From the NCBI GenBank assembly GCA_030710605.1, contig CP092877.1, forward strand, positions 38,902,373-38,966,372: DNA of 64,000 nucleotides, read 5' to 3'. The translations under genes and the position numbers were made by a program. This DNA is from Cordylochernes scorpioides (Eukaryota; Arthropoda; Arachnida; Pseudoscorpiones; Chernetidae). Under the pieces are notes generated by a model that made no database searches, was not told where the DNA came from, and was given only the letters and a program-made list of their open reading frames with translations. Shown here piece after piece: positions 2,918-57,536 of this stretch (its first letter is position 1; each line of letters starts with the position of its first letter).

Positions 2918-3241
2918 GTTCAAATCAATAAGCTTAAGGGATGAGTTTCTTTTCTAAATAAATTTATTTCGAGCTTTCGGGCAACGCCCTTCTACAGGAA
3001 AATAAAGTAAATTAAATTATATTACACTAAGATTAGGCGAGGCAAATGTATAACGAACTATAGAAAAATGTTTCTGATACTTATTTTCTATAGTTCGTTA
3101 TACATTTGCCTCGCCTAATCTTATATATAGTGTAATATAATTTAATTTACTATATTTTCCTGTAGAAGGGCGTTGTCCGAGAAAGCTCGAAATAAATTTA
3201 TTTGGAAAAGAAACTCATCCCTCAAGCTTATTGATTTGAAC
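2918..3241. repeat. Family E foldback
   Basis: Arms of about 145 bp (2918-3063 and 3087-3241) are inverted copies separated by about 23 bp. Each arm carries a block that reads, in its own orientation, CCTGTAGAAGGGC-GTT-GCCCGAAAGCTCG, with small changes. That resembles a hammerhead core with an altered CTGANGA box and an AGCT stem III. The duplicated segment holds the same foldback at 17452-17769, and a diverged relative lies at 61171-61341. Confidence 0.75.
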
Positions 3242-3552
3242 ATAATACATATATAAATTAAAAACAAAATAAGGCATTTTCTGACCGCTCACATGAACAA
3301 TTAAGATAGCAGAGCGACATCTAGTGGGAAAATATTTTATCATTCTGAAAGTTTCAATTCCAGAAGATAAACTTTCGACCTTTTATTTACAGAGATTTCG
3401 ACGACTTACTAACGCCATTTTCAAAGTTATAAAATTCCTTTGTGCTTGCGTAGCTGTTGTCAAATTGAGAGTCTTACAATGGGTTTTACGGGTATAAATA
3501 GTCGGTAGTACACATCTATTGATTTGCTGTTATTTCTTATTAAGATGCACCT

Positions 3553-3846
3553 GAGGATCAATGGAAGGATGGTCTAAACCGTTGGGTTTCGACCACTACG
3601 ACTCGGGATCGAATCCTGCATTGGGCATTTTTTTCTTATATTAAAAAAAATGCTCCAATGGCCCCCGATTCTTGCAAAATTCCTAACCCACCAGCTAGGA
3701 CAAGTAACAAAACGGGACTATGGCACATTTGTAAGTGCAAATTCGAACTGCTTTTCACATGTGTAGACAGTAAAAGCAGTCGCTAACTACTCAACATGAT
3801 TATCATGGCCTGTAACACGTGCACTGGGGATAATAAAAATAAAAAA
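3553..3846 (+). repeat. tRNA-derived SINE (copy in segment 1)
   Basis: The 5' part has a B-box-like CGGGATCGAATCCTGC preceded by a diverged A-box region, as in a tRNA-derived SINE head. A 200-bp body follows, ending in an A-rich tail of GATAATAAAAATAAA type. Flanking target duplications are visible as AAGATGCACCT before and AAGATACACCT after. Its twin is at 18080-18368. Confidence 0.65.
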
Positions 3847-3859
3847 AAGATACACCTAA

Positions 3860-6800: not shown

Positions 6801-7960
6801 AATACACAAGCGCAAATTTAAAATAGGTTATTTCAACTGCAAATGTCATTTATTAAGTTTATCACTCTGCAATATGAATAAAATATAAGTGTACCGTAGA
6901 TATAAAAGATGGTGAAATGTAAGGAGTTATATATATATATAAACTGAAATAACCTTATTTAAAAATTGGTTTGATCAATATTCTCAATGTACCAAAAAGA
7001 GGAATCTCTTTCTTTAATTGTGCATCATAGCAATGGCATTGTACATCACCCTATTAAAAAGCTTTACTAATGATGATCACCCTCTGTTAATAGAAAAAGA
7101 TCGTATGCAAAAAAAAAATATTTTTTTAAAATATTTTTATAGTTTTTAATTTATAAATATAAAAATTCTATTTAAAAAAATATATATATTTCAATTTTAT
7201 AAATAAAATATATGAATTTTATTATAATACGAACACAGAAATAGAAAAAAAGAAATAATTCGATTCCAAATATATTTAATAAAATTCAAAATCAATTTAA
7301 TAATATATGCATATATATTTCCATATGGCAATATGTCTGGCCAGATATGTAATATTTCGAATTGTCAGCAGAAATTTATGGGAAACTTTTTTTCCACCTT
7401 TTTCTGCAAACATGGAAGCAGACGAATATTTTGGGCGGGAAACTCGAATTTCTTCTGATCGACGTTAAATCTTGCGCGCCTAAACTTGTTAGGCCTAAGG
7501 TTATTAGATTCCCTCTAGCGGTGATTTTCATATTCCCTGCTTGCATATTCCATTTCCTATAAAATTGACTTTTAAAAAATATATTAATATTAATTAGATT
7601 CTGATATAATATCAGGGACACCAGATATATTTTATATAAAAAAATTATTTTAAAAGATATTTTTATCACATTCACCCTATATTTAAAAAAAAATTCTCTA
7701 TGAGAAAAATGGTTGAAATTTTATCTACCAAAATATATTCTTTCTTTTATATACGGAGAGGTTTAAAACTACTTATAAATATTTAAAAACCTTTTATTTT
7801 TTAGGATCTATTTTTTTAAATTCAATATTTCATTTTTTTTCTAAAAATATACGAATTTAATAGAATCGAATTATGGTTGTTGGATAAATAGAGAAAAGAA
7901 AATGAGGTTAACATAAATTAAATAGCTATATTAAACAATAATTTTATTTATAGAATTAAA
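3860..7960. other. AT-rich intergenic DNA, no gene recognised
   Basis: Long A/T-rich stretches with short TA microsatellites. A less AT-rich patch at about 4200-4520 (an unidentified 300-bp block with homopolymer G and A tracts) and a GGCCTAAGG-containing patch at about 7330-7560 are also present in the second copy. The short open frames here lack codon bias, domains or splice signals. Confidence 0.6.
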
Positions 7961-7964
7961 TTTG

Positions 7965-8250
7965 ACAATTTTACCGCATTTATTTTATTTTTTTGAACGA
8001 AAAATCGAAATTTATTTTAAGGAGAAATAACGATTATTTCTAACCTTAGGGATGAAGTATGAAAGGATGAATTGTAAAGAGTAATGATCAACGGAAAAAT
8101 AAAGTGTCCAGGGATGGGAATTCACACTTCACAATTCATCCTTTCATACTTCATCTCTAAGGTTAGAAATAATCGTTATTTCTCCTTAAAATAAATTAAG
8201 ATTTTCGTTCAAAAGAAACATTTGCGGTATAATTGTTAAATTTCGTTCTA
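7965..8250. repeat. Inverted pair of family F SINE tails
   Basis: The left arm (about 7965-8112, minus) and right arm (about 8120-8250, plus) both match the sequence that follows the tRNA-like head at 43670: a CATCC..CATACTTCATC block, TTAGAAATA, a CTCCTTAAAATAAATT block, then AAAAGAAACATTTGCGG. The centre keeps GTCCAGGGATGGG, which looks like a remnant of the tRNA acceptor region. The second segmental copy has only the left arm, so the right arm is specific to this copy. Confidence 0.65.
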
Positions 8251-14055: not shown

Positions 14056-14460
14056 AAACTAAAGAAGGCATCTCCTGACCACGAGCACATGTGCTTTTTA
14101 GATGGCAGAGCGCCATCTAGTGGAGCAAAAATAAACTAAACGTTTATTTAGCTTGCTCCGTGATATTTGGCCAACCCAATTTCTTGATAAATCAAGAAAA
14201 GCCATCCACGAACGCGTTTCGCGCTGTTGGCGCTCGTCAGCGTGGAGTAGGCTGTAACCACTGCGACCAAAAAGATTTTTTGATCCCATAGGCTTCCTGA
14301 GAAATCAAGAAATAGGTATTTAAGGCCAGATTTGCGTAAAGACGCTTAACACATGAAAAAAACAATAGAAAAAATAAAAAGATAAGTGGGTCAGGTGTTG
14401 ATATTAAAAATAAAGAAGGCATCTCCTGACCACGAGCATATGTGCTTTTTAGATGGCATA
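14056..14460 (-). repeat. Ribozyme-repeat family A, one full unit plus start of the next
   Basis: The block GGCATCTCCTGACCACGAGC occurs at 14067 and again at 14418, so the unit length is 351 bp in head-to-tail order. The first unit has the palindromic GATGGCAGAGCGCCATC, TTGGCCAACCC, the CTTGATAAATCAAG palindrome, the ribozyme, and a GATAAGTGGGTCAGGTGTTG end. The second unit breaks off into the duplicated segment after about 40 bp. Confidence 0.85.
14206..14245 (-). ncRNA. Hammerhead ribozyme, family A, intact core
   Basis: Read on the minus strand: stem I CCACG with CGTGG, core CTGACGA, stem II GCGC-CAACA-GCGC, GAAA, and minimal stem III ACGCGT giving a GTT cleavage triplet. All conserved core positions are present. 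Minimal stem III type I hammerheads are known from Penelope-like elements and retrozymes, where dimers or tandem copies help cleavage. Confidence 0.85.
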
Positions 14461-14800: not shown

Positions 14801-14905
14801 TTAGATAATAAAAAGGCATATATTGGATTTAATAAATATTATTGAATCCAATATATGCCTTTTTATTATCTAATGAATTAAATATGGATTGCTCTATTTT
14901 CAAAA
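14801..14905. mobile_element. Small hairpin insertion unique to copy 2
   Basis: This block is absent from the matching place in copy 1 (near 370). Its first 75 bases form a strong hairpin, AGATAATAAAAAGGCATATA pairing with its complement around an AATAAATATTATT centre. It is flanked by GGTATTAATAT and GGTAATAATAT, a likely 10-11 bp target duplication with one mismatch. Similar sequence occurs near 13573 and 34575-34620. Confidence 0.55.
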
Positions 14906-14939
14906 GGTAATAATATGTATAAGGAATCATTATAATGTG

Positions 14940-15262
14940 AAAAATAGTACAAATATATTATTGTACTGGGATAAGATGCGTAAATTAAGAAAGAAAAAAG
15001 ATACCTCTCTTTATCGAGCAACTGAAATTTGCTGATGGCTTGGGCCATCTATCGGAATAAATATAAAATATTCTCGTTGTTTTTTAATTATTCCAGAATT
15101 GGCCAAATATCCATTTTTGATTATTCAAGAATGGGTTTTTGGCCAATTCTGAAATTATTAAAAATCAACGAGAATAGTTGATATTTATTCCGATAGATGG
15201 TGCAAACCATCAGCAATTTTCAGTTGCGCAATAAGGAGATGCCTTTTTTTTCTTTCTTAATA
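14940..15262. repeat. Ribozyme-repeat family B foldback, copy 2
   Basis: Twin of the foldback at 397-720, with the same turn-round in the TTGATTATTCAAGAA palindrome and no ribozyme. Confidence 0.7.
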
Positions 15263-15709
15263 ATTATAATATTATTTTATGATGATAAAAATGTAAATAA
15301 CACCTACTCTAACGTTTAAAGAATATATAATTTTCAAAGCAAACCTTCGGGTGTTAAAATTTCTCAACCTCTAGTAAAAATGAGAAACGGTACACACTAT
15401 ATGAAATCTCTCCAAAATATTTTGAAAGGTTGCGGCAAATTTTACAAATTTTTAACTTTTTTAGTAGATATTATATATATCCCGCACAATTACAAATTTT
15501 CAAAAAATGTTTTAAACAAAATTAATTGTCATATCATCTATAGACGTAAAAGTTGTAACTATTTTTGAATGGATCTTTGAGAGATAATAAAGACATGTAT
15601 GTGAAATTCTTAGCGTATTTACGCAATTTTGGCCTTAAATACCCATTTCTTGATTTCTCAGAAAGTCTCTGAGACCATAATATTTTTGGTCGTAGAGGTA
15701 CAGTCTGCA

Positions 15710-15749
15710 CCACGCTGTAGAGGGCCACCAGCCCGAAGCGCGTTGGTGG
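15710..15749 (+). ncRNA. Hammerhead ribozyme, degenerate
   Basis: Twin of 1166-1205 in the second segmental copy. The core now reads CTGTAGA, the loop CACCA, and GAAG replaces GAAA, so it should be inactive. The added core changes relative to the twin arose after the duplication. Confidence 0.55.
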
Positions 15750-17451
15750 TTTACTTTTCTTGATTTATCAAGAAAATGGGTTGGCCAAATATCAGGGAGC
15801 ATGTTAAATCAACGTTTAGTTGATTTCTGTTCCACCAGATGTCGCTCTATCATAAAAAGGTCCATATGAACGTGGTCAGGATATGCCTTTTTTGATTTTA
15901 AAGAAATGTATGTGTATATTAGTATCTGATCAATTGTTTCTTTTATTCATTTCAACACACAAAACGCGATATCTCCGCTAGGATTAATATTGCTTCAATT
16001 TACAATTGTTAAAAAAAAAACAGTTATATAGATGATGCAAAAAAGAAAAAAGAAACGATAAGATAAAGTAAGAACCTGATTCTTTCAGGTTAGACAAATA
16101 GTCATAAATATATTTACAGAAGTGATTAAATCTCTGACAATTCCTCTGTAATTTACAAAAAAAAATTACATACATATCTATAACGTTAGTAACTGTCTGT
16201 TGTCTAACGCTGTAGAAAAGTGGACATTCCAACAGTAGGTGTCTCGAGTTTTAGGATTTCTTGCTATAGTAACAGCTCGAGTGCTAAACAGCTCCAATTG
16301 TTGACAAAAATCCCCTAAGGTTTCCGTGGTTTGTTATGAACCGGGTATTGTAAAAGTTAGAACGGATAAATAATGGAATTACAAGCATTAAAAAGCTTTG
16401 ATATGATTCATTTGTTTTAAGAATATAGATATAATTCATACATTTTTGCACACAATAAGGATAATTGTTGCTTTAATAATGATAACCAATGCGAATGTAT
16501 GTTAGTTGAATTTTCTGTATTAGAATCAGTCATTATTCCAACTGATCAATCAAACGGTATTATTGAAAGTTTATATGTAATTGGAAGCTATGCAATTAAA
16601 CTTGGAGATTACATAACCTAATTAACAGTCGTTCTGGATTTGCATAGCGTCACATGTGTGAGTTAATCTCTGTATTTACATATTCACATATTACGGTCGA
16701 GAATCGCGTTCTAAGATAAACCGGATTTAAGACCGGATCGCATATAAAACTGAGATTTTCCTATCCCATGGTTCAAATACAATTTTGGGAATAAGAAAAT
16801 AATCATAACTAAAATATGGAAGATTGTACTGCTGAACCTCTTTGTATATGTTATATGGCCTAGACAATTTAGTGATGGCTTCAAGTTTTTGTTTAGCATT
16901 TATTTCAATATAATAGTGGATCTTTCTTTTGTGTAGAAATAATACATGTATACAAATTTGAAGTTCAAATATGATAATTCAAATTTTAAAGGACATATCC
17001 AACAATGTGTGTGACTCTTTTTTTTTATTCAAAATGTAAGCTCTCAAGACAGTATCTCTGCTCCGCCGGCTTATATCCTGTAGGGACCTGTACAAGAGTT
17101 TTATAGCTGGAATTTTAAATTTAGGAAAAATTTAATTGTGAAAATATATTTTAAATATACCTTCCATAATTTTACCTTAAATATCATCATATATTTATTT
17201 TATTACCAGTTGCAAACAAGACACACTATATCCGATCCGAATAATTGCGCGTGAAACTATTTACAATAATTCATATTGTAGTAGAGTAGGTAACAGAATT
17301 GTCAAAAAGAAAATAAACAATTAAGAAAAAAAAGCATTGAATAAACATATACATTAAACAAAATATCATATATTATATCAACTTTGTATCTCCTATCGCT
17401 GAAAAATGCAATACATATATATTTAATTAATAGGCTAATCCCTTAATAGAA

Positions 17452-17769
17452 TGTTCAAATCAATAAGTTTAAGGGATGAGTTTCTTTTCTAAATAAATTT
17501 ATTTCGAGCTTTCGGGCAACGCCCTTCTACAGGAAAATAAAGTAAATTAAATTATATTACACTAAGATTAGGCGAGGCAAATGTATAACGAACTATAGAT
17601 AAATGTTTCTGATATTTATTTTCTATAGTTCGTTATACATTTGCCTCGCCTAATCTTAGTGTAATATAATTTAATTTACTTTATTTTCCTGTAGAAAGGC
17701 GTTGTCCGAAAGCTCGAAATAAATTTATTTGGAAAAGAAACTCATCCCTCAAGCTTATTGATTTGAACA
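17452..17769. repeat. Family E foldback, copy 2
   Basis: Twin of 2918-3241 with nearly identical arms. The GCCCGAAAGCTCG-type block is present in both arms. Confidence 0.75.
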
Positions 17770-18079
17770 TAATACATATATAAATTAAAAACAAAATAAG
17801 GCATTTTCTGACCGCTCACATGAACAATTAAGATAGCAAAGCGACATCTAGTGGGAAAATATTTTATCATTCTGAAAGTTTCAATTCCAGAAGATTAACT
17901 TTCGACCTTTTATTTACAGAGATTTCGACGACTTACTAACGCCATTTTCAAAGTTATAAAATTCCTTTGTGCTTGCGTAGCTGTTGTCAAATTGAGAGTC
18001 TTACAATGGGTTTTACGGGTATAAATCGTCGTTAGTACACATCTATTGATTTGCTGTTATTTCTTATTAAGATACACCT

Positions 18080-18368
18080 GGGGATCAATGGAAGGATGGT
18101 CTAAACCGTTGGGTTTCGACCACTACGACCCGGGATCGAATCCTGCATTGGGCATTTTTTTCTTATATTAAAAAAATGCTCCAATGGCCCCCGATTCTTT
18201 CAAAATTCCTAACCCACCAGCTAGGACAAGTAACAAAACGGGACTATGGCACATTTGTAAGTGCAAATTCGAACTGCTTTTCACATGTGTAGACAGTAAA
18301 AGCAGTCGCTAACTACTCAACATGATTATCATGGCCTGTACCATGTGCACTAGGGATAATAAAAAAAA
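18080..18368 (+). repeat. tRNA-derived SINE (copy in segment 2)
   Basis: Twin of 3553-3846, flanked by AAGATACACCT and ATATACACCT. Confidence 0.65.
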
Positions 18369-18379
18369 TATACACCTAA

Positions 18380-21300
18380 TTTGTAAACAAACATTATTGC
18401 CCGAAATTAGTCTATTTTACAAAATAAATTTATATTCTGTACTTTATATATAAAATACAGAAGAGAATGGCATTCATGTACTAAAAGAGACATCTCCTCC
18501 TTAAAAATTCACTCGCACATTTGCCCAGAACATTTTGCTGATTATGAAGAATGTGTTACAGCACCAGTTTGGGGGAATTCAAACAAAAGTCAAACTACAT
18601 AACATTCAATACTGAGTGATTAACTGAAATTGCATTGTTTTGATGCATTTTTTAAAGGGAATGGTGCCTCTTTTGGGATATAAAATATAAAAATAAATAC
18701 ATTTCTTATTATTGTAACTTGCCTGGAAATATTGAAGTTAAAGGAAGGCTGACGTCCCCAGAGATAGCCGTGACAACCAGGCGCCATATAACTTCACAAC
18801 AGGAGAACAGGGAACAGGAAAAGACCGACCTTTGTCTCCAGTGGGGGGGTTACACTCTGGCAAAAAAAAATAGAGCCGGGGGCTGGTTAAAGACAGTTGG
18901 GAGGTAGAGATCAAAGGAGATGCGGCCGTACTGGGCAGTCTTTATTGCTGGAGCCATGTCAGCACGTTTTTTCTATAAACGTAGCCTTCTTGTCGCCACT
19001 GACCTCTGGAGTGTTTATTTTATTCTCCATTTACAACATTACATATATATATATATTATAAAAAAAATATTTAATTTCAAAATGTATTGTCCTAGAACAA
19101 ACTCTGTGAAGTCGACCGTCACTATATAAATTCGTTGTTGTTGTTTTCTTTTGGCCGACACAAATATTTTTGTAGATATGTAAATACGTAATCTTTTATT
19201 TTCTTCATTCTTCACGTCTTAAGTCAGGTATCACTTTTTTAAAATTATGTCTTATATATTTTCATAAGCACAATTAGAGCAATTTGTGATTTGAATTGAT
19301 TTTATTATATTTTATTCAAAGGGTCACGTCTACAAACTATTGGCTAAATGCTCACGAATTCAAATTCAAAGCAAATAACTTCTCTAAGCAATATTTTAAA
19401 ACATATATATTATTTTTGAAATCAAAGAGAGAATGAAATTCTTCAGTTGTTAATTTAAAATCTACATTGAATATGTATATTGCCACGGTTGCAGATTCAT
19501 TTGTCTGATGAAGCATAGAAGCATGCTTGTTTACTTAGCTTTATAGCGAAAGATACGCCTTGCTAAGCCTTGTTATAATATTAGTTGATAATCTATTGAA
19601 ATCCTATTATTTTATAAGGTTGTCCTAAAATTTCTTATTTTTCTTAAAACGTTGTTTATCTTATTACTTGGTGAATAATATTATTACGGCAAATACATAA
19701 TATAATACATAATACAATTACTTTATACATAATTCAAAGGCATTATACATAACAGCGAATAATATTGGTATTTCAATTTTTGCAAATGTTTACGAACTTT
19801 TGGGACAAACTTGTAGAATCTAATGTCTAAATTCCGATTTGATTTAAGGTAATAGATTGACGTATTTGTATTTAAGGCGTTAAGATTGGAATTATTTGGT
19901 CTTAAATCCGGATGGTCTAAAATCGGGAACGAGGACATTATCGGAGACTGAGTCTACAATACCGAATATCGGAACTGAGGGTTTAATTTGAAATGTCAGA
20001 GGCCAGTTTGTCGAGAAAACTCCAACAATGACTTAGTGTGGTCGAATTCACCCTCAGGTAATGGGGAACTTTGTTGAAGACGACAATAGAAAACCGACCA
20101 ATCAAATTTGGACTAAATAGAGTAAATACATCCCATTATCGTATGTATAGCTATTCTGATTGGTTGCCTTACATACGAGCTATGCCATCTCTCTTTGTGA
20201 TTGGTTGTTCCTATTTTGATTATTTTTTGTCCTGTCTGAAAATGGTATACAGTTTAGATTTATTCATGTTTCTGTTTATCAATCAATCAATCAATGCTTT
20301 TCAAGTTGCATATGTTGTTAATTTTAGGTTGAAGAGTAGAAGCATTTCGATATAAAATATATTTATTGGCTTATATACTTATCACAACATTATAAAAGTA
20401 AGAAGTGATTAAATGCAAAATATTATATATCTAAATACAAAAGGTTATTTAAAAATTAAAGACCATCCTTTGTTCTTCATGATTTTTATTGATGTCCTTT
20501 CTTTTTTTCACAGACATTATACCTTCAGTATTAACCTGTAATAATAACAAAATAATGCCTATTTTCAGAAAAATGAACAGGGATATATTTCTTGAAATAT
20601 ATTTTTATTATATATGATGAAATTTATATTTATTCTTTTCTTTTTCAAATAATTTCTAGGTATCTATTTTACTCACATATTTAATTACATATTTAAATTA
20701 ATTCTCTTAATTATTATTTTCAAACAAACTGCTTAACGAAGTGATCAACATCTATATATATAATGAACAACATATAAATACTAACTATAATTATTTATCC
20801 AAATGCCATCTATCTCGTAATAATTTATAATTATTATTTTTGACCATGTTTTCTTGATACATATTATCAAATATATTATCTCTGCATATTTATCATTTGA
20901 TAACTTTAATTATTGCAGTAAGGTCTGTTGAAATATTATTTATTATTATTGTAGCAAAATATTTATGTCATTTTAATGAACTGATCATTAATTTTGATAT
21001 TTATATATTTTGTTACTCTGAAAACTTCCCTTATTGCTTCTCTGATATTTCATAAATGCTAATTTATACTTGCCTTAAATAAAATGCTCTGTCATCTTGA
21101 ATTTTGTTTTTCCCAATTTCTATAAATGACATTATATATCATAAGTAATATATTGCCAAAAATTGCTTCTATTACAAATTTTACAAATTTAACAGCTAAA
21201 TATAATAATATGATTACTAAATATTGCCAAATATTGTAACTTTTTTGTGTGTAATTAAATAAATATTTTTGATATTGTTTTTATATATTTTACTAAATAA

Positions 21301-22490
21301 ATATTATTTTAAATATCCAATACACAAGCGCAAATTTAAAATAGAGGTTATTTCAACTGCAAATGTCATTTATTAAGTTTATCACTCTGCAATATGAATA
21401 AAATATAAGTGTACCGTAGATATAAAAGATGCTGAAATGTGAGGAGTTATATATATAAACTGAAATAACCTTATTTAAAAATTGGTTTGATCAATATTCT
21501 CAATGTACCAAAAAGAGGAATCTTTTTCTTTAATTGTGCATCATAGCAATGGCATTGTACATCACCCTATTAAAAAGCTTTACAAATTATGATCACCCTC
21601 TGTTAATAGAAAAAGATCGTATGCAAAAAAATATATTTTTTTTATTTTTATAGTTTTTTAATATATAAATATAAAAATTATATTTAAAAATATATATATA
21701 TTTCAATTTTATAAATAAAATATATGAATTTTATTATAATACGAACACAGAAATAGAAAAAAGAAAGAATTCGATTCCAAATATATTTAATAAAATTCAA
21801 AAATCAATTTAATAATATATGCATATATATTTCCATATGGCAATATGTCTGGCCAGATATGTAATATTTCGAATTGTCAGCAGAAATTTATGGGAAACTT
21901 TTTTTCCCACCTTTTTCTGCAAACATGGAAGCAGACGAATATTTTGGGCGGGAAACTCGAATTTCTTCTGATCGACGTTAAATCTTGCGCGCCTAAACTT
22001 GTTAGGCCTAAGGTTATTAGATTCCCTCTAGCGGTGATTTTCATATTCCCTGCTTGCATATTCCATTTCCTATAAAATTGACTTTTAAAAAATATATTAA
22101 TATTAATTAGATTCTGATATAATATCAGGGACACCAGATATATTTTCTATAAAAAAATTATTTTAAAAGATATTTTTATCACATTCACCCTATATTTAAA
22201 AAAAAATTCTCTATGAGAAAAATGGTTGAAATTTTATCTACCAAAATATATTCTTTCTTTTTATATACGGAGAGGTTTAAAACTACTTATAAATATTTAA
22301 AAACCTTTTATTTTTTTAGGATCTCTTTTTTTAAATTCAATATTTCATTTTTTTTTCTAAAAATATACGAATTTAATAGAATCGAATTATGGTTGTTGGA
22401 TAAATAGAGAAAAGAAAATGAGGTTAACATAAATTAAATAGCTATATTAAACAATAATTTTATTTATAGAATTAAATTTGACAATTTTAC
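18380..22490. other. AT-rich intergenic DNA, twin of 3860-7960
   Basis: It repeats the AT-rich stretch of copy 1. Nothing gene-like was seen. Confidence 0.6.
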
Positions 22491-22644
22491 CGCATTTATA
22501 TTTTTTTTGAACGAAAAATCGAAATATATTTTAAGGAGAAATAACGATTATTTCTAACCTTAGGGATGAAGTATGAAAGGATGAATTGTAAAGAGTAATG
22601 ATCAACGGAAAAATAAAGTGTCCAGGGATGGGAATTCACACTTC

Positions 22645-22883
22645 CCAAAGGCGATCACACCCCATATTAACAACAATATCCAAGATATTTATGCACTGAC
22701 TGCAAGAAGATCATTGCTTGACCGGCTAATTTGCATAAAATACGTGTTAGAATTCTTTGATTTCGGGTATTCTAATCAATTATGGAATAATAAATTTGTG
22801 TATAAAATTTCATTGATAAATGTTCAATAAAATTTGAGATAAATGAAAAAAATATTTTGTTCCTTTAATTTTGCGGACCAGTG
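22645..22883 (+). mobile_element. 3' end of a Tc1/mariner-like element
   Basis: The right end reads, on the minus strand, CACTGGTCCGCAAAATTAAA, which matches a common Tc1-like terminal repeat, and a TA follows. The left end is cut at the border of the duplicated segment. The open frame through the junction has no recognisable transposase motif. Confidence 0.5.
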
Positions 22884-27010: not shown

Positions 27011-27021
27011 TATAATAAAAT

Positions 27022-27410
27022 TAAAAATAAAGAAGGCATCTCCTGACCACAAGCACATGTACTTTTTAGATGGCAGAGCGCCATCTAGTGGAGTAAAAAT
27101 AAACTAAACGTTTATTTAGCTTACTCCGAGATATTTTGGCCAACCCAATTTCTTGATAAATCAAGAAAAGCCATCCACGAACGCGTTTCGCGCTGTTGGC
27201 GCTCGTCAGCGTGGAGAAGGCTGTAACCATTGCGACCAAAAAGATTTTTGGTTCGTGGATGGCTTTTCTTGATTTATCAAGAAATTGGGTTGGCCAAATA
27301 TCTCGGAGTAAGCTAAATAAACGTTTAGTTTATTTTTACTCCACTAGATGGCGCTCTGCCATCTAAAAAGCACATGTGCTTGTGGTCAGGAGATGCCTTC
27401 TTTATTTTTA
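27022..27410. repeat. Family A inverted dimer with hammerhead
   Basis: The left arm (minus, 27022-27252) is a family A unit with an intact ribozyme. The right arm (plus, about 27253-27410) is an inverted copy of the part downstream of the ribozyme. The right arm begins at CGTGGATGGC (27254), which is the predicted first nucleotide after cleavage. Outer ends are both AATAAAGAAGGCATCTCC and its complement. Confidence 0.85.
27175..27214 (-). ncRNA. Hammerhead ribozyme, family A, intact core
   Basis: Same sequence as 14206-14245: stem I CCACG/CGTGG, CTGACGA, GCGC-CAACA-GCGC, GAAA, ACGCGT stem III, GTT cleavage triplet. All core positions are present. Confidence 0.85.
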
Positions 27411-27479
27411 ATATCAACACCTGACCCACTTATCTTTTATTTTTTTCTATTGTTTTTTCATATAATAAAATCTTAAATA

Positions 27480-41017: not shown

Positions 41018-41269
41018 TGTGGCGAAGAAATATTTTATTAATCAATTTAATATTATTCAATGAAAATATATAATCAACAGATTATAAAAATATATATTAA
41101 TCTGTATTTGTGAAATCATCTATAAAATATTTATTTGCTTGCTTGCTTAAGATTCTCTAGCGGTAAATAGTTTTGCTGACTTGTTAATAATTGTCGACTC
41201 GTCGCTGTGACGTCATCAATAAATACTTTTACATCTTAGGATATTTCAAGGCTTGATTTCTACGTTACA
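41018..41269 (+). repeat. 5' LTR, 252 bp
   Basis: It carries a perfect CRE, TGACGTCA, at 41208-41215 and AATAAA at 41218-41223. It differs from the 3' LTR only at one position (TTTATTTGC here, TTTCTTTGC there). Confidence 0.9.
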
Positions 41270-41345
41270 ACTGGTGGAGAAGCTGGACCGATACCCATTA
41301 AGAAATAAAAGAAAAATTGATTCTGTTGAATCAGACGAAACTTCT

Positions 41346-42566
41346 ATGAATGTAAAGCTGGAAGCAGGTACCCAGGTAAGCAACTACGTTGTTCAACATC
41401 TGCCAAGGAACCCTTCCATTTTCTCCGGGGAGGATGGTGAAGATCTCCAAAAATGGTTAAAAGGGTATGCACATGTGGCAAAGTACAACCATTGGGATGA
41501 AACCCTTTGTCTTACTAAAGTTTATTTTTATTTGTCTGGAACTGCTCTCAAATGGTTTGAGAACAACGAAGAAAGCATCCAGACTTGGAAGGAATTCGCA
41601 TCTCAATTAGAGAATGTGTTCGGAAAAAAAGAAAATTCAAAATTGCAAGCGGAGAAGAAACTTAAAACACGGGCACAATTAAAAGGCGAAAGTATCGAAT
41701 TTTACATCCAGGATGTCCTGTGCTTTTGCAAAGAGGCTGATCCTCAAATGAGCGAGGAAGATAAAATCTCCCACCTCATGAAGGGGATAGCTGAGGAGCT
41801 TTATCAAGCACTCCTACCGAGGGATGTACAGAGCACCGAGCAATTCATTACAGAATGTCGCCTTGTCGAAGAGCTTCGCTGTAGGCGAGTTACCCCAACC
41901 AAGTACGAGCGCCTATCAAATGTAGCCTCTCTCTGTGACCAGGATGATGGAGAAGATCTATCATCGCTGATCCGAAAAATTGTTCGTGAAGAGATAAAGC
42001 AAGCATTGGACTCTCCTCAAGAGGAGCCTAAAATCGCTGTCATTGAAGATTTAGTGAGGGAAGAGATTGTAAAGACCATGGCACCTAGATCAAAACCTAC
42101 AATAAGTCCCCCTCAAGCATCCAGGCCTAGATACGAGGCCCAAACGATACGACCGCATCCTGAACCTCATTACCGAAAGCAAGGAAGAAGATGTGACACC
42201 AATGAATGGCGGACAACTGAGGGAAAGCCAATCTGTTTCTACTGCGGACGCCCAGGTCACGTCGTCCGCTATTGCCGCGACAGGAAGAGACACAATGAGG
42301 AAAGGAAAAATAAATATCTCCAAAGAAAGCAAGACGCAATGGAATTCTACAACTCTCAAACCGAATCTCAGGAACCCAACGATGAATTATCGAGGAAAAA
42401 TTTCAGTCGCTACCGAAGCCCTACCCCATATACCGGTCGAAACAGACAAAATTTCTCACCTGCTAGAAGATCTAGCTGGTCGCCCCGCCATGGAAATCAG
42501 ATGATAGACCATATTGAAGGTGAGGACGCAAAGTTAGGAAATCCTACCTTGCCGACCACAGTATAA
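41346..42566 (+). CDS. gag: Gag polyprotein of Ty3-like retrotransposon
   Basis: The protein has 406 residues from the first ATG. The frame stays open upstream to 41253 inside the LTR but has no earlier ATG. Residues about 22-170 match the retrotransposon gag (capsid) family: FSGEDGEDLQKWL, YFYLSGTALKWF, WKEFASQLENVF. Residues 297-310 form a zinc knuckle, CFYCGRPGHVVRYC, with exact CX2CX4HX4C spacing, for RNA packaging. The C-terminus is rich in Arg, Ser and Asn. Capsid and knuckle types are those common in chelicerate Ty3-like elements. The frame has no stop or frameshift, consistent with one LTR difference. After the TAA stop the same frame runs to 42689 with a short extension; an A8 tract followed by C lies between. 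Confidence 0.9.
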   Translation: MNVKLEAGTQVSNYVVQHLPRNPSIFSGEDGEDLQKWLKGYAHVAKYNHWDETLCLTKVYFYLSGTALKWFENNEESIQTWKEFASQLENVFGKKENSKLQAEKKLKTRAQLKGESIEFYIQDVLCFCKEADPQMSEEDKISHLMKGIAEELYQALLPRDVQSTEQFITECRLVEELRCRRVTPTKYERLSNVASLCDQDDGEDLSSLIRKIVREEIKQALDSPQEEPKIAVIEDLVREEIVKTMAPRSKPTISPPQASRPRYEAQTIRPHPEPHYRKQGRRCDTNEWRTTEGKPICFYCGRPGHVVRYCRDRKRHNEERKNKYLQRKQDAMEFYNSQTESQEPNDELSRKNFSRYRSPTPYTGRNRQNFSPARRSSWSPRHGNQMIDHIEGEDAKLGNPTLPTTV

Positions 42567-43008: not shown

Positions 43009-43222
43009 ATATATATATATATATGAAAAAACAATAGAAAAAAAATAATAAGTGGGTCAGGTGTTGATATTAAAAATAAAAAAGGCATATCCTGACCAGG
43101 AGCACATGTGCTTTTCAGAAGCCAGAGCGCCATCTGGTGGAACAGAAATCAACTAATCATTGATTTAGCCTGTTCCCTGATATTTGGTCAACCCAATTTT
43201 TTGATAAATCAAGAAAAGCCAT

Positions 43223-43262
43223 CCACGAACACGTTTCGCGCTGTTGGCGCTAGTCAGCGTGG
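43223..43262 (-). ncRNA. Hammerhead ribozyme, degenerate core
   Basis: On the minus strand stem I CCACG/CGTGG, stem II GCGC-CAACA-GCGC and GAAA are intact, but the core reads CTGACTA, losing the essential G. The copy should be inactive. Confidence 0.6.
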
Positions 43263-43429
43263 ATTTATTTTTAATATCAATACCTGACCCATTTATATAT
43301 ATTTTTTCTATTGTTTTTTTTCATGTGTTAAGCGTATTTACGCAAGTTTGGCCTTAAATACCCATTTCTTGATTTCTCAAGAATCCACTGGGACCAAAAA
43401 TCTTTTTGGTCGCAGTGGTACAGCATACT

Positions 43430-43469
43430 CCACGCTGACGAAGGCCAACAGCGCGAAACGCGTTCGTGA
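43430..43469 (+). ncRNA. Hammerhead ribozyme, degenerate stem II
   Basis: The core CTGACGA, GAAA and ACGCGT stem III are present. Stem II (AGGC-CAACA-GCGC) has two mismatches, and the last stem I pair is lost (CCACG/CGTGA). Weak or inactive. Confidence 0.55.
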
Positions 43470-43669
43470 ATGGCTTTTCTTGATTTATCAAGAAATTGGG
43501 TTGGCCTTAAATATCAGGGAACAGGCTAAATAAATGTTTAGTTGATTTCTGTTCCACCAGATAGCGCTCTGCCATCTGAAAAGCACATGTGCTCCTGGTC
43601 AGGATATGCATTTTTTATTTTATATATATTTAAGTACTTTAAGTATTATTTACGAACGGAGAAATAACG

Positions 43670-43885
43670 TCCAGGGTAGCCTAGTGGACATGGCACCTGC
43701 CCGGTAAGCAGAAGGTTGTGGGTTCGATTCCCGCCCCTGGACACTTATTTTTCCCGTTCGCCATTACTCTTCATATTTTCACCCTCTCATACTTCATTCA
43801 AAAAAGTTAGAAATAGTGAATATTTATCTTTAAAATAAATATTGATTTTTCATAGAAAAGAAACTTATGCGGTATAATTTTAAGT
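43670..43885 (+). repeat. tRNA-derived SINE, family F
   Basis: The first 73 bases (43670-43742) fold as a tRNA: acceptor TCCAGGG/CCCTGGA, D-arm GCC/GGC with GTGG, anticodon arm CTGC/GCAG, T-arm GTGGG-TTCGATT-CCCGC. The loop CCGGTAA would give anticodon GGT (Thr), but position 33 is C instead of the invariant T. A 140-bp tail follows that recurs alone at 50451-50600 and 7965-8250, so I read this as a SINE rather than a working tRNA gene. Confidence 0.65.
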
Positions 43886-46468: not shown

Positions 46469-47671
46469 CAGTGGTACCTCGACATACGAGTTTAATTCGT
46501 TCTGCAACCTTGCTCGTATCTTGAATTACTCGTATCTCGAAGCAAATTTCCCCATACAAAACAATTGAACTACCATTAATCCGTTCCAACCTCCAAAATG
46601 TCACCCAGTTATTTTTGTTACGTGGTTTTAAATAATAAAAACGTATTTATAAATATCAAATATTTATTGCACAAAAACAAAAAAGAGAATGTAAATCCTT
46701 GGGCTTTTATTAGATCGGAAAATGTTTTTATGTAATCCTCAGCTGCCTTCATATCTGAACTTGCTGCCTCACCATGTCTGACAACGGAGTGAATACCGCT
46801 CCTCTTTTTAAAATTCTCAAACCAGCCCCGGCTGGCTTTAAATGACTCTTCCGATGCCTCGTCGATGGGAGTCTGCGGGTTTTGCTTCAGCAAATCTCCG
46901 TAGATCGCTCTTGCCTTCTCACAAATGATGAATGCGTCAAGGTATCTCCTTGGAGCTGCTTTTCTGTCACCCACACCATCAGCAGTTTCTCCATATTTTC
47001 ATGAAGGGAGGTTCGCAGCTTGGAAATTATCGTAAGGCCCTTAGCCGGCGTTACACTCTTTATCGACTCCTTCCGTTTAAGCACAGAACATATCATGGAC
47101 GTACTACGGCCATACTGCCTCGACAAGTCAACAACTCGAACATCTTGCTCATGTTTTTCTTTAATTTCACGTTTTAATTCAATACTCATCATCTTTTTCT
47201 TAGCACTTGACTTTTTACAAACTTTCTTCCGATCCATGGTCATAAAAATAAATCAACTAAAATTGTAAATGTAAACGCGAACACAAAACACAACTTATCA
47301 CAGCGCAAGCACGCTGCTAACTGATCGTGATGGCGCGACTGCGTGTTACTACCTGTTGTGTTTTAACTTTAAAAGCACACAAAAATATAATAAACTTGAA
47401 TTTGTTTATTCAAGTCTCAAAAAACAAAGCTTTGCATATAGAACAAATAATAATGAAGAAGAAGAAAGAAACATTTTAGGAAAAGCAAAAACAAAACAAA
47501 AGTACTGGTCAAAAAGAAACATTCAAAATCACATATTAATATCTTCAACACTACCGAACCGAACTCGTATCTCGAATTTCGCTCGTAACTAAAAGCAAAA
47601 AATCACTTGCTCGTCGGCTCGTATCTCGAAAAACTCGTATGTTGGGGCACTCGTATGTCGAGGTACCACTG
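46469..47671 (-). mobile_element. Tigger/pogo DNA transposon, internally deleted
   Basis: The terminal inverted repeats are CAGTGGTACCTCGACATACG at 46469 and its complement (one base changed) ending at 47671, with TA on both outer sides. Sub-terminal CTCGTATCTCGAA-type blocks repeat at both ends. Total length is 1203 bp against roughly 2.5-3 kb for full elements. The only coding part is the N-terminal DNA-binding region on the minus strand. Confidence 0.85.
46618..47243 (-). pseudogene. Tigger transposase, DNA-binding part only, frameshifted
   Basis: The first frame (47243 down to about 46930) begins MTMDRKKVCKKSS and contains a Pipsqueak/CENP-B type helix-turn-helix: LKREIKEKHEQ, VVDLSRQYGRSTSMICSVL. 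The second frame (about 46970 to 46618) carries the second CENP-B/Tc5-type helix-turn-helix: ICEKARAIYGDLL and SRGWFENFKKRSGIHSVV. The change of frame lies near 46930-46960, after MEKLLMVWVTEKQLQGD. The catalytic DDE domain is absent: after IKAQGFT the frame runs into an unrelated tail and a stop. If made at all, the product could bind the terminal repeats but not cut them. Confidence 0.8.
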
Positions 47672-50256: not shown

Positions 50257-50270
50257 CTTATACGAGGATA

Positions 50271-50435
50271 GCACTTCTCTTGACAAGGATGGGATAGTTT
50301 TCGGGCTCCAAACCTATACAGTTAGCGCTCCCTTTCACAAGGATGGGATAGTCTTCGTACCCAACACATAAACGGTTAGCACTACCCTTGACAAGGATGG
50401 GACCCAGAATAGGACCCAACACACATACGGTTATA
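50271..50435. repeat. Intronic tandem repeat, three units of about 55 bp
   Basis: GACAAGGATGGGATAG.. ACCCAACACA..ACGGTTAG-type units recur at 50281, 50337 and 50390. They lie just upstream (minus strand) of the Ig-like exon. Confidence 0.65.
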
Positions 50436-50450
50436 TGCTATATATAATTT

Positions 50451-50600
50451 GTGACTTTATTTTTCCGTTTATCATTACTCTTCACAATTCATCCTATCAT
50501 ACTTCATCCCTAAGGATAGAAATAGTCATTATTTCTCCTTAAAATAAATTTCGATTTTTCGTTTAAAAGAAACATTTGCGGTAAAATTTTCAAATTTCGA
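50451..50600 (+). repeat. Family F SINE tail without tRNA head
   Basis: It matches the part of the SINE at 43670-43885 that follows the tRNA-like head (TTATTTTTCCGTTTATCATTACTC onward, ending AAACATTTGCGG). It lies in the intron between the two minus-strand exons. Confidence 0.65.
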
Positions 50601-53384: not shown

Positions 53385-53583
53385 AATACTACTCCACGCT
53401 GACGAGCTCCAACAGCGCGAAACATTTCGTGGATGGCTTTTCTTGATTTATCAAGAAATTGGGTTGGCCAAATATCACGGAGCAAGTTAAATAAACGTTT
53501 AGTTTATTTTTGCTCCACTAGATGGCGCTCGGCCATCTAAAAAGCACATGTGCTTTTGATCAGGAAATGCCTTCTTTCTTTAT
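53385..53583 (+). repeat. Ribozyme-repeat family A unit
   Basis: A single unit, truncated just upstream of the ribozyme, then the CTTGATTTATCAAG palindrome, GGGTTGGCCAAATATC, GATGGCGCTCGGCCATC, AGCACATGTGCT and GATCAGGAAATGCCTTCTTT. Confidence 0.8.
53394..53432 (+). ncRNA. Hammerhead ribozyme, family A, near-intact
   Basis: Stem I CCACG/CGTGG, core CTGACGA and GAAA are intact. Stem II GCTC-CAACA-GCGC has one mismatch, and stem III has changed to ACATTT, losing self-complementarity. Reduced activity is likely. Confidence 0.65.
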
Positions 53584-53590
53584 AATATAG

Positions 53591-54094: not shown

Positions 54095-54154
54095 TATATA
54101 TATATATGTGTGAAAAAATAATAGAAAAAGAAAAGGTTCAGGTGTTGATCTTAA

Positions 54155-54262
54155 AAATAAAAAATGCATATCCTGACCAGGAGCACATGTGCTTTTCAGA
54201 ATGGCACTCTGCCTTCTGAAAAGCACATGTGCTCCGGGTCAGGTATATGCCTTTTTATTTTA
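54155..54262. repeat. Short family A palindrome
   Basis: The two ends of a family A unit (TGCATATCCTGACC / GGTCAGGTATATGCC with AGCACATGTGCT) face each other around GAATGGCACTCTGCC. It is a foldback of about 108 bp lacking the ribozyme part. Confidence 0.75.
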
Positions 54263-54473
54263 AAAATATATTTCTATGTGAAAAAATAGTACAAATGTAA
54301 CATTGTACTGGGATAAGGTGCATAAATTAAGAAAAAGGCATCTCCTTATCGTGCAACTGAAAGTTGCTGATGGCTGGCGCCAACTGTCGGAATAGATATC
54401 AACTATTCTCGTTGATTTTTAATTATTCCAGAATTGGCCAAATACCCATTCTTGATTAATCAACAAAAGCTAA

Positions 54474-54513
54474 CCACGGACGCGTTTCGAGCTGTTGGCC
54501 CTCATCAGCGTGG
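54474..54513 (-). ncRNA. Hammerhead ribozyme, family B, unit 1
   Basis: Minus strand: stem I CCACG/CGTGG, core CTGATGA, stem II GGGC-CAACA-GCTC (one G-U pair), GAAA, minimal stem III ACGCGT, cleavage triplet GTC. All core positions are conserved. Confidence 0.88.
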
Positions 54514-54811
54514 TGCAAGCTGTACCTCAACAACCAAAAAATTGGTCATTAAGGCATCCTGAAAAATCATGAAACGGGTAGTTAAGGCCAGAATTGCGTG
54601 AGGACGCTACACAATGTGAAAAAATAGTACAAATGTAACATTGTACTGGGATAAGGTGCATAAATTAAGAAAAAGGCATCTCCTTATCGTGCAACTGAAA
54701 GTTGCTGATGGCTGGCGCCAACTGTCGGAATAAATATCAACTATTCTCGTTGATTTTTAATTATTCCAGAATTGGCCAAATACCCATTCTTGATTAATCA
54801 AGAAAAGCTAA

Positions 54812-54851
54812 CCACGGACGCGTTTCGGGCTGTTGGCCCTCATCAGCGTGG
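54812..54851 (-). ncRNA. Hammerhead ribozyme, family B, unit 2
   Basis: Identical to unit 1 except for a perfect stem II, GGGC-CAACA-GCCC. It lies exactly 338 bp from unit 1, so a transcript through both would release a 338-nt monomer on cleavage. Confidence 0.92.
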
Positions 54852-55407
54852 TGCAAGCTGTACCTCAACAACCAAAAAATTGGTCATTAAGGCATCCTGA
54901 AAAATCATGAAACGGGTAGTTAAGGCCAGAATTGCGTGAGGACGCTACACAATGTGAAAAAATAGTACAAATGTAACATTGTACTGGGATAAGGTGCATA
55001 AATTAAGAAAAAGGCATCTCCTTATCGTGCAACTGAAAGTTGCTGATGGCTGGCGCCAACTGTCGGAATAAATATCAACTATTCTCGTTGATTTTTAATT
55101 ATTCCGTGGTTAGCTTTTCTTGATTAATCAAGAATGGGTATTTGGCCAATTCTGGAATAATTAAAAATCAACGAGAATAGTTGATATTTATTCCGACAGT
55201 TGGCGCCAGCCATCAGCAACTTTCAGTTGCACGATAAGGAGATGCCTTTTTCTTAATTTATGCACCTTATCCCAGTACAATGTTACATTTGTACTATTTT
55301 TTCACATTGTGTAGCGTCCTCACGCAATTCTGGCCTTAACTACCCGTTTCATGATTTTTCAGGATGCCTTAATGACCAATTTTTTGGTTGTTGAGGTACA
55401 GCTTGCA

Positions 55408-55447
55408 CCACGCTGATGAGGGCCAACAGCCCGAAACGCGTCCGTGG
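55408..55447 (+). ncRNA. Hammerhead ribozyme, family B, inverted unit
   Basis: Plus-strand copy with perfect stem I, core CTGATGA, stem II, GAAA and GTC triplet. Because it lies inverted to units 1 and 2, either transcript of the array carries at least one active-looking ribozyme. Confidence 0.92.
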
Positions 55448-55619
55448 TTAGCTTTTCTTGATTAATCAAGAATGGGTATTTGGCCATTTCTGGAATAATT
55501 AAAAATCAACGAGAATAGTTGATATTTATTCCGACAGTTGGCGCCAGCCATCAGCAACTTTCAGTTGCACGATAAGGAGATGCCTTTTTCTTAATATATT
55601 TCTATGTAATATAAATTTA

Positions 55620-56670: not shown

Positions 56671-57297
56671 CTCCTTCAGTGCCTTCCTCTACTGAGGGTG
56701 GGTCACATGGTCTCTCCATATCTCTCTCCTTCAGTGCCTTCCTCTACTGAGGGTGGGCCACGTGGTCTCTCCATATCTCCCTCCTTCCGTGCATTCTTCT
56801 ACTGAGGGTGGGTCACATGGTCTCTCCATATCTCCCTCCTTCCGTGCCTTCTTCTACTGAGAGTAGGCCACGTAGTCTCTCCATATCTCCCTCCTTCAGT
56901 GCCTTCTTCTACTGAGAGTAGGCCACGCGATCTTTCCATATCTCCCTCCTTCAGTAACTTCCTCTACTGAGAGTAGGCCACGTGGTCTCTCCATATCTCC
57001 CTCCTTCAGTGCCTTCTTCTACTGAGAGTAGGCCACGCGATCTTTCCATATCTCCCTCCTTCAGTAACTTCCTCTACTGAGAGTAGGCCACGTGATCTCT
57101 CCATAACTCTCTCCTTCAGTACCTTCCTCTACTGAGAGTAGGCCACGTGGTCTCTCCATAACTCTTTCCTTCAGTGCCTTCCTCTACTGAGAGTAGGCCA
57201 CGCGATCTTTCCATATCTCCCTCCTTCAGTAACTTCCTCTACTGAGAGTAGGCCACGTGATCTCTCCATAACTCTCTCCTTCAGTACCTTCCTCTAG
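56671..57297 (+). repeat. Minisatellite, 55-bp period, about 11 units
   Basis: Units read CTCCTTCAGTGCCTTCCTCT then ACTGAG(A/G)GT(A/G)GG(C/T)CACGTGGTCTCTCCATATCTCC. Starts at 56671, 56726 and 56781 fix the period at 55 bp. Most units carry CACGTG or a one-base variant, an E-box palindrome. Later units share higher-order patterns, for example GTAACTTCC units alternating with GTGCCTTCTTC units, so pairs of units have been copied together. Confidence 0.92.
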
Positions 57298-57536
57298 TGA
57301 GAGTGCTGAGGTTCCCGGTCCTCCGCCATCCTCTTCATCTCCTCGTAGGTGTGGCGTCCAGTCCATTGTTTTAAATCGTCTATGTCTAAAGACACTACCG
57401 GACTATAAACCTGACATACGATGTTCTCCATAGTAATTATTATTAGAGTAAAAAGTTCCATGTGAACTTCAACCGAGCTGTATATGTGAATATTGTGAGG
57501 AATTTCTCGAAAGATATCATTGTATCCGCTATTCAT
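57294..57536 (-). CDS. Hypothetical open frame abutting the minisatellite
   Basis: An 80-codon minus-strand frame whose last 45 codons look more coding-like: SPVVSLDIDDLKQWTGRHTY then EEMKRMAEDREPQHSH, charged and of balanced composition, in contrast to the surroundings. It ends with a TAG just where the 55-bp repeats start. It could be the last exon of a gene whose 3' part is the minisatellite, or a transposon-derived fragment. I do not recognise the family, and upstream exons were not found. Confidence 0.2.
   Translation of the reverse strand: MNSGYNDIFREIPHNIHIYSSVEVHMELFTLIIITMENIVCQVYSPVVSLDIDDLKQWTGRHTYEEMKRMAEDREPQHSH

What the first reader, a model, noticed from the sequence alone, without database searches (positions are those of the whole stretch)
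54277..55600. Young retrozyme-like array: 338-bp tandem units with intact hammerhead ribozymes, then inverted units
Unit starts at 54277, 54615 and 54953 give a strict 338-bp period. Ribozymes at 54474-54513 (-), 54812-54851 (-) and 55408-55447 (+) have every conserved core box (CTGATGA, GAAA, GTC) and pairing stems I and II. Known metazoan retrozymes and Penelope pLTRs use such ribozymes to cut transcripts into monomers that may circularise. The inverted half means both strands carry an active-looking ribozyme, which is unusual.
Basis: partly seen in the sequence, partly recalled or inferred. Interest (0 to 1): 0.9.

Follow-up and report, generated by a model that had tools for sequence, protein, structure and literature searches.

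The report
Mirror-image retrozyme with Penelope insertion marks
A small self-cutting RNA element has been copied into this animal genome as two mirror-image arms whose ends carry the signature of Penelope retrotransposons, which gives structural support to a proposed but untested idea about how such ribozyme elements spread.

Summary
The array is real: one insertion of a 338-bp hammerhead retrozyme. Two minus-strand units and a fragment are followed, after an inversion at 55103-55105, by about 1.4 plus-strand units, between 15-bp target duplications. The ribozymes score below Rfam's cut-off, but base pairing is kept between families. Two such ribozyme words occur 19,685 and 23,960 times in this 2.6-Gb genome.

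The inversion is not unusual here. In 31 two-sided insertions the RNA 3' ends face outward. In 30 of 30 readable cases (28 independent) one end stops near U61, the other near U10. Nine of nine readable Penelope palindromes in this genome also have one tailed and one tailless end. That matches the two reverse-transcription start sites of a purified Penelope enzyme (PMC11167929).

In 10 of 36 insertions a variant is shared by every covering unit on both arms; one two-variant word occurs only twice genome-wide, once per arm. Best reading: Penelope-type reverse transcription primed on both target strands, from a multimeric or circular template. Partner element, cleavage, expression and circularity remain unshown.

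The parts
54265..54279 (.). left copy of the target site duplication AATATATTTCTATGT (last 4 nt also readable as element end)
   Evidence: 15-nt match to its own right flank; none of 27 other right flanks matches as well
54276..55105 (-). left arm: ribozyme strand reads leftward; U61 at the outer end (54276), two full 338-bp units, fragment ending at U246
54276..54326 (-). 'tail': the 51 nt (U11-U61) present at this outer end only
54474..54513 (-). hammerhead ribozyme 1 (cleavage predicted between 54479 and 54478); one G.U wobble in stem II
54812..54851 (-). hammerhead ribozyme 2 (cleavage predicted between 54817 and 54816)
55103..55105 (.). inner 5'-to-5' junction of the two arms: left arm ends at U246, right arm begins at U195-197, 3-nt overlap TCC; the right arm's start coincides with the predicted ribozyme cleavage site (U196/197)
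   Evidence: such a coincidence is not significantly enriched among 28 insertions (3 of 56 ends, 1.24 expected)
55103..55594 (+). right arm: U195-338, one full unit, then U1-10; tailless outer end
55408..55447 (+). hammerhead ribozyme 3 (cleavage predicted between 55442 and 55443)
55593..55607 (.). right copy of the target site duplication (first 2 nt also readable as element end)
27020..27458 (.). older related family V (351-bp unit, hammerhead at 27179-27209 -), also head-to-head with one tailless and one tailed end
43026..43609 (.). V-family head-to-head insertion, hammerhead at 43435-43465 (+), tail left, tailless right
54112..54267 (.). small V-family head-to-head remnant just left of the insertion
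53389..53589 (+). V-family fragment with a divergent hammerhead at 53399-53428

Best explanation
This is one insertion of a non-autonomous, non-coding retrozyme family (unit U, 338 bp, type I hammerhead), most likely mobilised by an enzyme of the Penelope-like (PLE) kind. Proposed cycle: tandem copies are transcribed and the ribozymes cut some or all of the RNA (inferred). A multimeric or re-circularised RNA is bound by a PLE reverse transcriptase with a GIY-YIG endonuclease (inferred). The enzyme cuts both strands of a TA-rich site with a stagger of about 12-16 bp (shown by the target duplications that can be read). Each target strand primes one cDNA. The two cDNAs start at two fixed places about 51 nt apart, one per strand, so exactly one outer end carries the 'tail' (shown by counts). 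The two cDNAs meet in the middle at a variable junction, which gives mirror-image arms with 3' ends outward (shown). In about a third of the insertions examined both arms or all units demonstrably copy the same sequence variant (shown). Whether the template is a circle copied several times round or a short homogeneous concatemer is open; I favour a circle slightly.
For: 338-bp unit, hammerheads, TSD. Structured RNA: -114 kcal/mol, z -6.5, 0 of 100 shuffles as low. Hammerhead stems kept between families: 95.5% of cells paired against at most 37% for slid partners; 13 cells changed on both sides, 0 of 500 shuffles. 31 of 41 clusters are two-sided head-to-head; 30 of 30 readable have one tailed and one tailless end, 28 of 28 after dropping two segmental-duplicate copies and one cut cluster. 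V family: 5 of 5 independent two-sided clusters likewise. PLE palindromes of the same genome: 9 of 9 readable of 10. TSDs: mean best shared word 12.9 nt against 7.8 for mismatched flanks; at 9 of 28 sites no other flank does as well (12-16 nt). 48 of 62 arms exceed 338 nt, so a ribozyme-cut linear monomer cannot be the usual template. Shared variants: of 28 shared sample-private variants 20 are in all covering units; 12 of 36 insertions have such a variant and in 10 of the 12 it is on both arms; label shuffles give 0.05 on average, 2 at most. A two-variant 35-mer of one insertion occurs exactly twice in 2.62 Gb, once per arm. PAc, a purified PLE, cleaves and extends both strands, starts at two sites, and its 'tail' is the sequence between them (PMC11167929, passages).
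Against: No autonomous PLE sharing sequence with U or V was found: L053-L072 align to U or V only in short, mostly AT-rich words, and L051/L052 to U only in words of 13-22 nt. No expression, cleavage or circularity data. In one search the number of pairs with double changes (2) and of further pair types (9) is no higher than in shuffles (401 and 285 of 500 reach it): the covariation rests on two pairs and one family split. At 3 of 28 insertions no target duplication was readable (best word 3-4 nt), and at 16 more the TA repeat makes it ambiguous. Arm-to-arm gene conversion could also give shared variants, though 0 of 14 changes after two segmental duplications spread to a second unit. Two single-variant words are not private genome-wide (327 and 329 copies). 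Long arrays (C5, C22, C20, C2:100370400) hold heterogeneous units, which fits concatemers rather than one circle. In C2_11085 a variant is on one arm only. Inner ends are not enriched at the ribozyme cut (3 of 56, 1.24 expected, P 0.13). One plus-minus neighbour pair was seen against 15 minus-plus.
Confidence: 0.72

Rival explanations
1. Self-priming (snap-back) of one cDNA, or use of an antisense RNA template, makes the inverted repeat, as proposed for bdelloid Penelope elements.
For: Head-to-head PLE arrangement with palindromes at the junction led to this proposal in PMC3846280 (passages). A few junctions here lie at the palindrome near U210-232.
Against: Snap-back predicts both arms to turn at about the same template position: 4 of 28 junctions have inner ends within 15 nt of each other, 2.6 expected by chance (the window is one of the 4 by BLAST ends, but its exact ends, U246 and U195, are 51 apart). 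It gives no reason why the outer ends are always one tailed and one tailless.
Confidence: 0.08
2. DNA-level events only: satellite-like tandem duplication followed by local inversion or fold-back recombination.
For: A long same-strand array with a repeating variant pattern exists at C2:100370400; an 88-bp satellite that contains part of U exists on C7.
Against: Loci dispersed over many contigs, with fixed outer ends and readable target duplications at the sites that are not TA repeats, 3 exceptions apart.
Confidence: 0.05
3. The arrays are remnants of full PLE copies (stacked pLTRs after loss of the coding part), not an independent non-autonomous family.
For: Ends, TSDs and ribozyme placement are PLE-like. 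By eye, V has an ATG just after the cleavage site; in PAc the ribozyme overlaps the ORF start (PMC11167929).
Against: Clusters were joined over gaps of at most 60 nt, so the parsed two-sided arms leave no room for a coding region (the 1.2 kb between the two C9 parts was not examined); the longest stop-to-stop stretch in the window array is 49 codons. The hammerhead-bearing PLE 3' ends fetched have other hammerhead sequences.
Confidence: 0.15
4. The shared variants in both arms come from gene conversion between the arms after insertion, so they say nothing about the template.
For: Near-perfect palindromes are known to convert (recalled). C5 and C22 share single variants between some units of opposite arms.
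Against: 0 of 14 post-duplication changes spread in two duplicated insertions, against 28 of 133 sample-private variants that are shared in the main set; a small sample.
Confidence: 0.25

Closest known systems
Metazoan non-LTR retrozymes (Cervera and de la Pena 2020, PMC7229834; abstract and passages read)
   Same: Non-coding tandem units of about 300 bp (150-450), type I hammerhead, low GC, TSDs longer than 4 bp when present, highly self-paired RNA; high copy number.
   Different: The word 'inverted' does not occur in its main text, and PLE mobilisation is argued there from co-occurrence and shared traits. Here the insertion structure itself carries PLE marks.
Penelope-like elements with pLTRs, tail and minimal hammerheads (PMC3846280, PMC11167929; passages read)
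   Same: Head-to-head arms, 30-40 nt tail at one outer end, AT-rich target, TSD, ribozyme upstream of the start sites.
   Different: No RT or endonuclease encoded; a 338-bp unit is repeated; the tail is 51 nt; the hammerhead has a different sequence.
Amphibian satellite 2 / axolotl retrozymes (330-350 bp, PMC7229834)
   Same: Unit size, very high copy number (axolotl: up to 120,000, section title).
   Different: Whether those insertions show the one-tail rule was not tested here; sequences were not compared.
L1 twin priming (recalled)
   Same: Two target strands prime two cDNAs that join head to head.
   Different: Here both cDNAs start at fixed sites of the template and cover overlapping or repeated sequence.

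Membership tests
Metazoan non-LTR retrozyme | short non-coding tandem repeat (about 150-450 bp) with GC below 50% | tested here: met
   338 bp, GC 41%, longest stop-to-stop stretch 49 codons
Metazoan non-LTR retrozyme | type I hammerhead with complete core and paired stems | tested here: met
   but sub-threshold for Rfam HH9
Metazoan non-LTR retrozyme | canonical helix III and loop-loop contact (against the minimal PLE type) | tested here: inconclusive
   helix III is 2 bp with a 2-nt loop; stem I folds with an internal loop; tertiary contact not tested
Metazoan non-LTR retrozyme | TSD longer than 4 bp where present; no LTR, PBS or PPT | tested here: inconclusive
   TSD 12-16 bp at 9 of 28 unambiguous sites, 3 of 28 without one; PBS and PPT not searched
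Metazoan non-LTR retrozyme | expressed as circular RNA, self-cleaving | not testable with these tools
   no RNA data
Penelope-like element | encodes RT and GIY-YIG endonuclease | tested here: not met
   no coding capacity in the array
Penelope-like element | head-to-head arms with tail at one outer end and TSD in AT-rich DNA | tested here: met
   30 of 30 readable, TSDs; same ends in 9 of 9 readable PLE palindromes of this genome

The most novel reading that the evidence does not exclude
Each insertion is made by one asymmetric enzyme-RNA complex that uses the two start sites once each, one per target strand, and both cDNAs run round the same small RNA circle: two-strand rolling-circle target-primed reverse transcription. 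Full PLEs and retrozymes would share the one-site-per-strand rule.
Probability: 0.35. Interest if true: 0.82.

Novelty: new member of a known kind. Interest (0 to 1): 0.62.

Why it matters
PLE mobilisation of animal retrozymes has been argued from co-occurrence and shared traits (PMC7229834, PMC7761336), and the head-to-head arms and 'optional' tail of PLEs have been explained by self-priming or left open (PMC3846280, PMC11167929). The counts here link the two: the same end rule in retrozymes and PLEs of one genome, one start site per strand, and, in a third of insertions, arms or units from the same sequence variant. That turns a proposal into precise tests of circular against linear templates. 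A genome with tens of thousands of copies is a good system for them.

Tried and rejected
Hammerhead cleavage as the usual 5' end of the cDNA: inner ends are not significantly enriched at U197, although the window's right arm starts there. Snap-back: see rivals. Sample-private single variants as proof of one template: weakened when 236A and 219G proved to have 327 and 329 copies genome-wide; the two-variant word of C17 stood. In the first 100 of 329 places, four stretches are 88-bp satellite arrays; of the 27 other loci 5 hold more than one copy, 4 of them on both arms (by eye). Partner PLE: L053-L072 were compared with U and V, L051 and L052 with U; the later ends L073-L086 were not compared. 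Orientation in the first 100 places each, by eye: 15 neighbouring opposite-strand pairs within 600 bp are minus-plus, 1 is plus-minus (C1:7792511). PMC12910113 (passages) has no mention of hammerheads or pLTRs.

Rows dropped before counts: the 38 U loci are all distinct loci, where 40 of 335 candidates were scored, so young full copies are over-represented. parses 41 clusters of at least 100 bp; one of 31 two-sided clusters is cut by the end of the fetched stretch and is not counted for ends; a 20-nt plus-strand stub beside C22_27707 was left out; C9 is listed as two one-sided parts split by 1.2 kb; the 62 arms include the two duplicate copies. One search leaves out C2:100370400, the second copies of two segmental duplicates, one cut cluster and rows of under 40 nt, and uses 150 of the 176 unit rows, in 36 insertions, not all two-sided. 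One search uses 28 insertions. One search uses 24 of the 28 distinct hammerheads; I left out four by eye (one with a shifted start, one with an unusual stem I, the window's own shortened copy at 53399, and one that differs only in the last base). Three of these pair badly; over all 28, each of ten pairs is kept in 24 to 28. V: 17 clusters, of which 6 are two-sided (5 independent); of the 11 others ten are one-sided or fragments and one (C24) runs plus, plus, minus. PLE pairs: of 11 close pairs, L051 was not read for ends and C1:119836583 had no readable left end; some tails were read by eye where the motif has a mismatch.

Full report
What is there. The window lies in an unnamed 2.62-Gb assembly of 24 contigs. 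At 54276-55594 there is a single insertion of a 338-bp unit that I call U, numbered on the ribozyme strand from TTTTTCTTAATTTATG. The left arm reads leftward: U61 at 54276, two full units, then a fragment that ends at U246. The right arm reads rightward from U195-197 through one full unit to U10. The arms overlap by 3 nt at 55103-55105. The flanks repeat AATATATTTCTATGT at 54265-54279 and 55593-55607; none of 27 other right flanks matches the left flank as well.

The ribozymes. The core CTGATGA starts at U167 and the predicted cut is after U196. Rfam's HH9 model gives 25.5-26.5 bits for the three, E 0.001-0.002, below its gathering score of 52. Comparison of families is a better test. Between U and the related family V, the outer pair of stem I changes from A-U to U-A and the second pair of stem II from G-C to C-G. 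On 24 distinct sequences 95.5% of cells pair, against at most 37% for slid partners; 13 cells have changes on both sides, which none of 500 shuffles reaches. Two other measures of that call, the number of pairs with a double change (2) and of further pair types (9), are no higher than in shuffles: the covariation is two pairs and essentially one split between families. The whole unit folds at -114 kcal/mol, z -6.5.

How common. A 35-nt ribozyme word, with up to two mismatches, occurs 19,685 times in the U form and 23,960 times in the V form; the two sets may overlap a little; the reversed patterns occur 0 times. V units are 351 bp and the window holds several.

The inversion is the rule. I parsed the 38 distinct loci: 41 clusters of at least 100 bp, of which 31 are two-sided, all head-to-head with the RNA 3' ends outward, and 10 are one-sided entries. 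In 30 of 30 readable two-sided clusters one outer end is at U56-67 and the other at U3-12; none has two ends of the same kind. Two pairs are segmental duplicates, so 28 are independent. If the two ends were chosen independently, at least half would be alike, so 28 of 28 has a chance of at most 4 in a billion (my arithmetic). V shows the same in 5 of 5 independent two-sided clusters; two of these rest on tail fragments of about 50 nt at 81-83% identity.

Target sites. Over 28 insertions the best shared flank word averages 12.9 nt, against 7.8 for mismatched flanks. At 9 sites no other flank does as well (12-16 nt); at 3 none is readable (3-4 nt); the rest are TA repeats in which the length is ambiguous.

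The same marks in Penelope elements of this genome. A GIY-YIG search listed 146 matches (150 of 17,015 candidates scored); the 11 pairs that lie within 5 kb are all minus then plus (by eye). L052 is a palindrome with 2402-nt arms, 100% identical, that codes for RVT_1 and GIY-YIG; it ends on one side at TATATAAAT and on the other about 35 nt later, and its flanks share GATTCAGGTAAT. For 10 of the 11 pairs I looked at both ends: 9 are readable and all have one tailed and one tailless end; the left end of C1:119836583 was not found. In C3:60214170 the tail is judged from homology between L063 and L066. The PLE ends with a recognised hammerhead carry sequences unlike U's.

What that suggests. In a purified anole PLE, reverse transcription starts at two adjacent internal sites, the 'tail' is the sequence between them, both target strands are cut and extended, and no difference in start site between top and bottom strand was seen (PMC11167929, passages). 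If each insertion uses one site per strand, but either strand may take either site, that observation and the present counts agree. PMC3846280 describes the tail as optionally present on one of the inverted pLTRs and prefers self-priming on an antisense template (passages). Self-priming predicts that the arms turn at about one template position; 4 of 28 do within 15 nt, 2.6 expected, and the window, one of the four by BLAST ends, has exact ends 51 nt apart.

The template. 48 of 62 arms are longer than 338 nt, so the usual template is longer than one ribozyme-cut unit or is circular. Of 133 sample-private variants with at least two covering units, 105 are in one unit, 8 in some and 20 in all. 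Twelve of 36 insertions have an all-unit variant, and 10 of the 12 have it on both arms; shuffled labels give 0.05 on average and 2 at most. Two single-variant words turned out to be rare rather than private (327 and 329 copies). The two-variant word of C17:42,133,671 occurs exactly twice in the assembly, once on each arm. So both arms there came from one sequence, by a common template or by later conversion. In two insertions that were later duplicated with their surroundings, 0 of 14 later changes have spread to a second unit, which speaks against frequent conversion but is a small sample. In the window insertion 292T is in 4 of 4 covering unit rows, on both arms, though the variant is also found in two other sampled insertions. 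Long arrays are less uniform, and one insertion has a variant on one arm only. I therefore keep circle against concatemer open.

Comparison. The element works like a metazoan non-LTR retrozyme and meets most of the features I could test. It is not a PLE, since it codes for nothing, but its insertions bear PLE marks. PMC7229834 and PMC7761336 (passages) already propose PLEs as likely mobilisers and circular RNA as template. Papers were searched with 'retrozyme/hammerhead', 'Penelope-like/hammerhead ribozyme', 'Penelope/pLTR/inverted/tail', 'retrozyme/penelope/target-primed' and 'penelope/head-to-head/reverse transcription/pLTR'; the passages I read of the papers I opened do not report the one-tail rule for retrozymes. 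The 2014 hammerhead-PLE paper (PMC4209133) is not held, and subscription papers are mostly missing, so priority is not settled.

Limits. No RNA data; partner PLE unknown; host unnamed; sample biased to young, well-matching copies.

Noticed in passing
window 361-8134 and 14905-22648: Segmental duplication inside the window, 7.8 kb at 96.8% identity, with its retrozyme fragments.
   Followed up: no
window 50269-50466: U6atac-like match (37.1 bits, gathering 33) that overlaps a 54-bp tandem repeat of 2.5 copies: part of a snRNA seems locally duplicated.
   Followed up: no
window 56671-57304: 55-bp minisatellite, 11.5 copies, 90% matches, about 1 kb right of the insertion.
   Followed up: no
G000 C7:71881992-71882550, 101195623-101198205, 101223241-101225998, 101640652-101641382: Arrays with mostly 88-bp spacing that contain a 31-nt piece of U with the 219G variant: a retrozyme fragment seems to have become a satellite.
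   Followed up: no
L034 (C2:100370400-100375100): Same-strand array of 13 full U units plus partial ones, with a repeating pattern of variants, so probably amplified as DNA; it runs beyond the fetched stretch.
   Followed up: partly
L051 (C1:8985900-8993200): PLE-like palindrome (3.4-kb arms, 98.7%) whose GIY-YIG domain lies before the RT, as in PLEs with an N-terminal endonuclease (name Naiad recalled); also head-to-head.
   Followed up: partly
window 14210-14240 and related V copies: By eye, an ATG follows the V ribozyme's cleavage site closely and opens about 35 codons, as in PLEs whose ribozyme overlaps the ORF start; perhaps a trace of an ancestral PLE.
   Followed up: no
window 41223-42566; 46618-46998 (-): Retrotransposon gag with zinc knuckle, and a Tc5-type transposase DNA-binding domain.
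   Followed up: no
window 43669-43744: tRNA-Thr gene (GGT) some tens of bp right of a V-family insertion.
   Followed up: no
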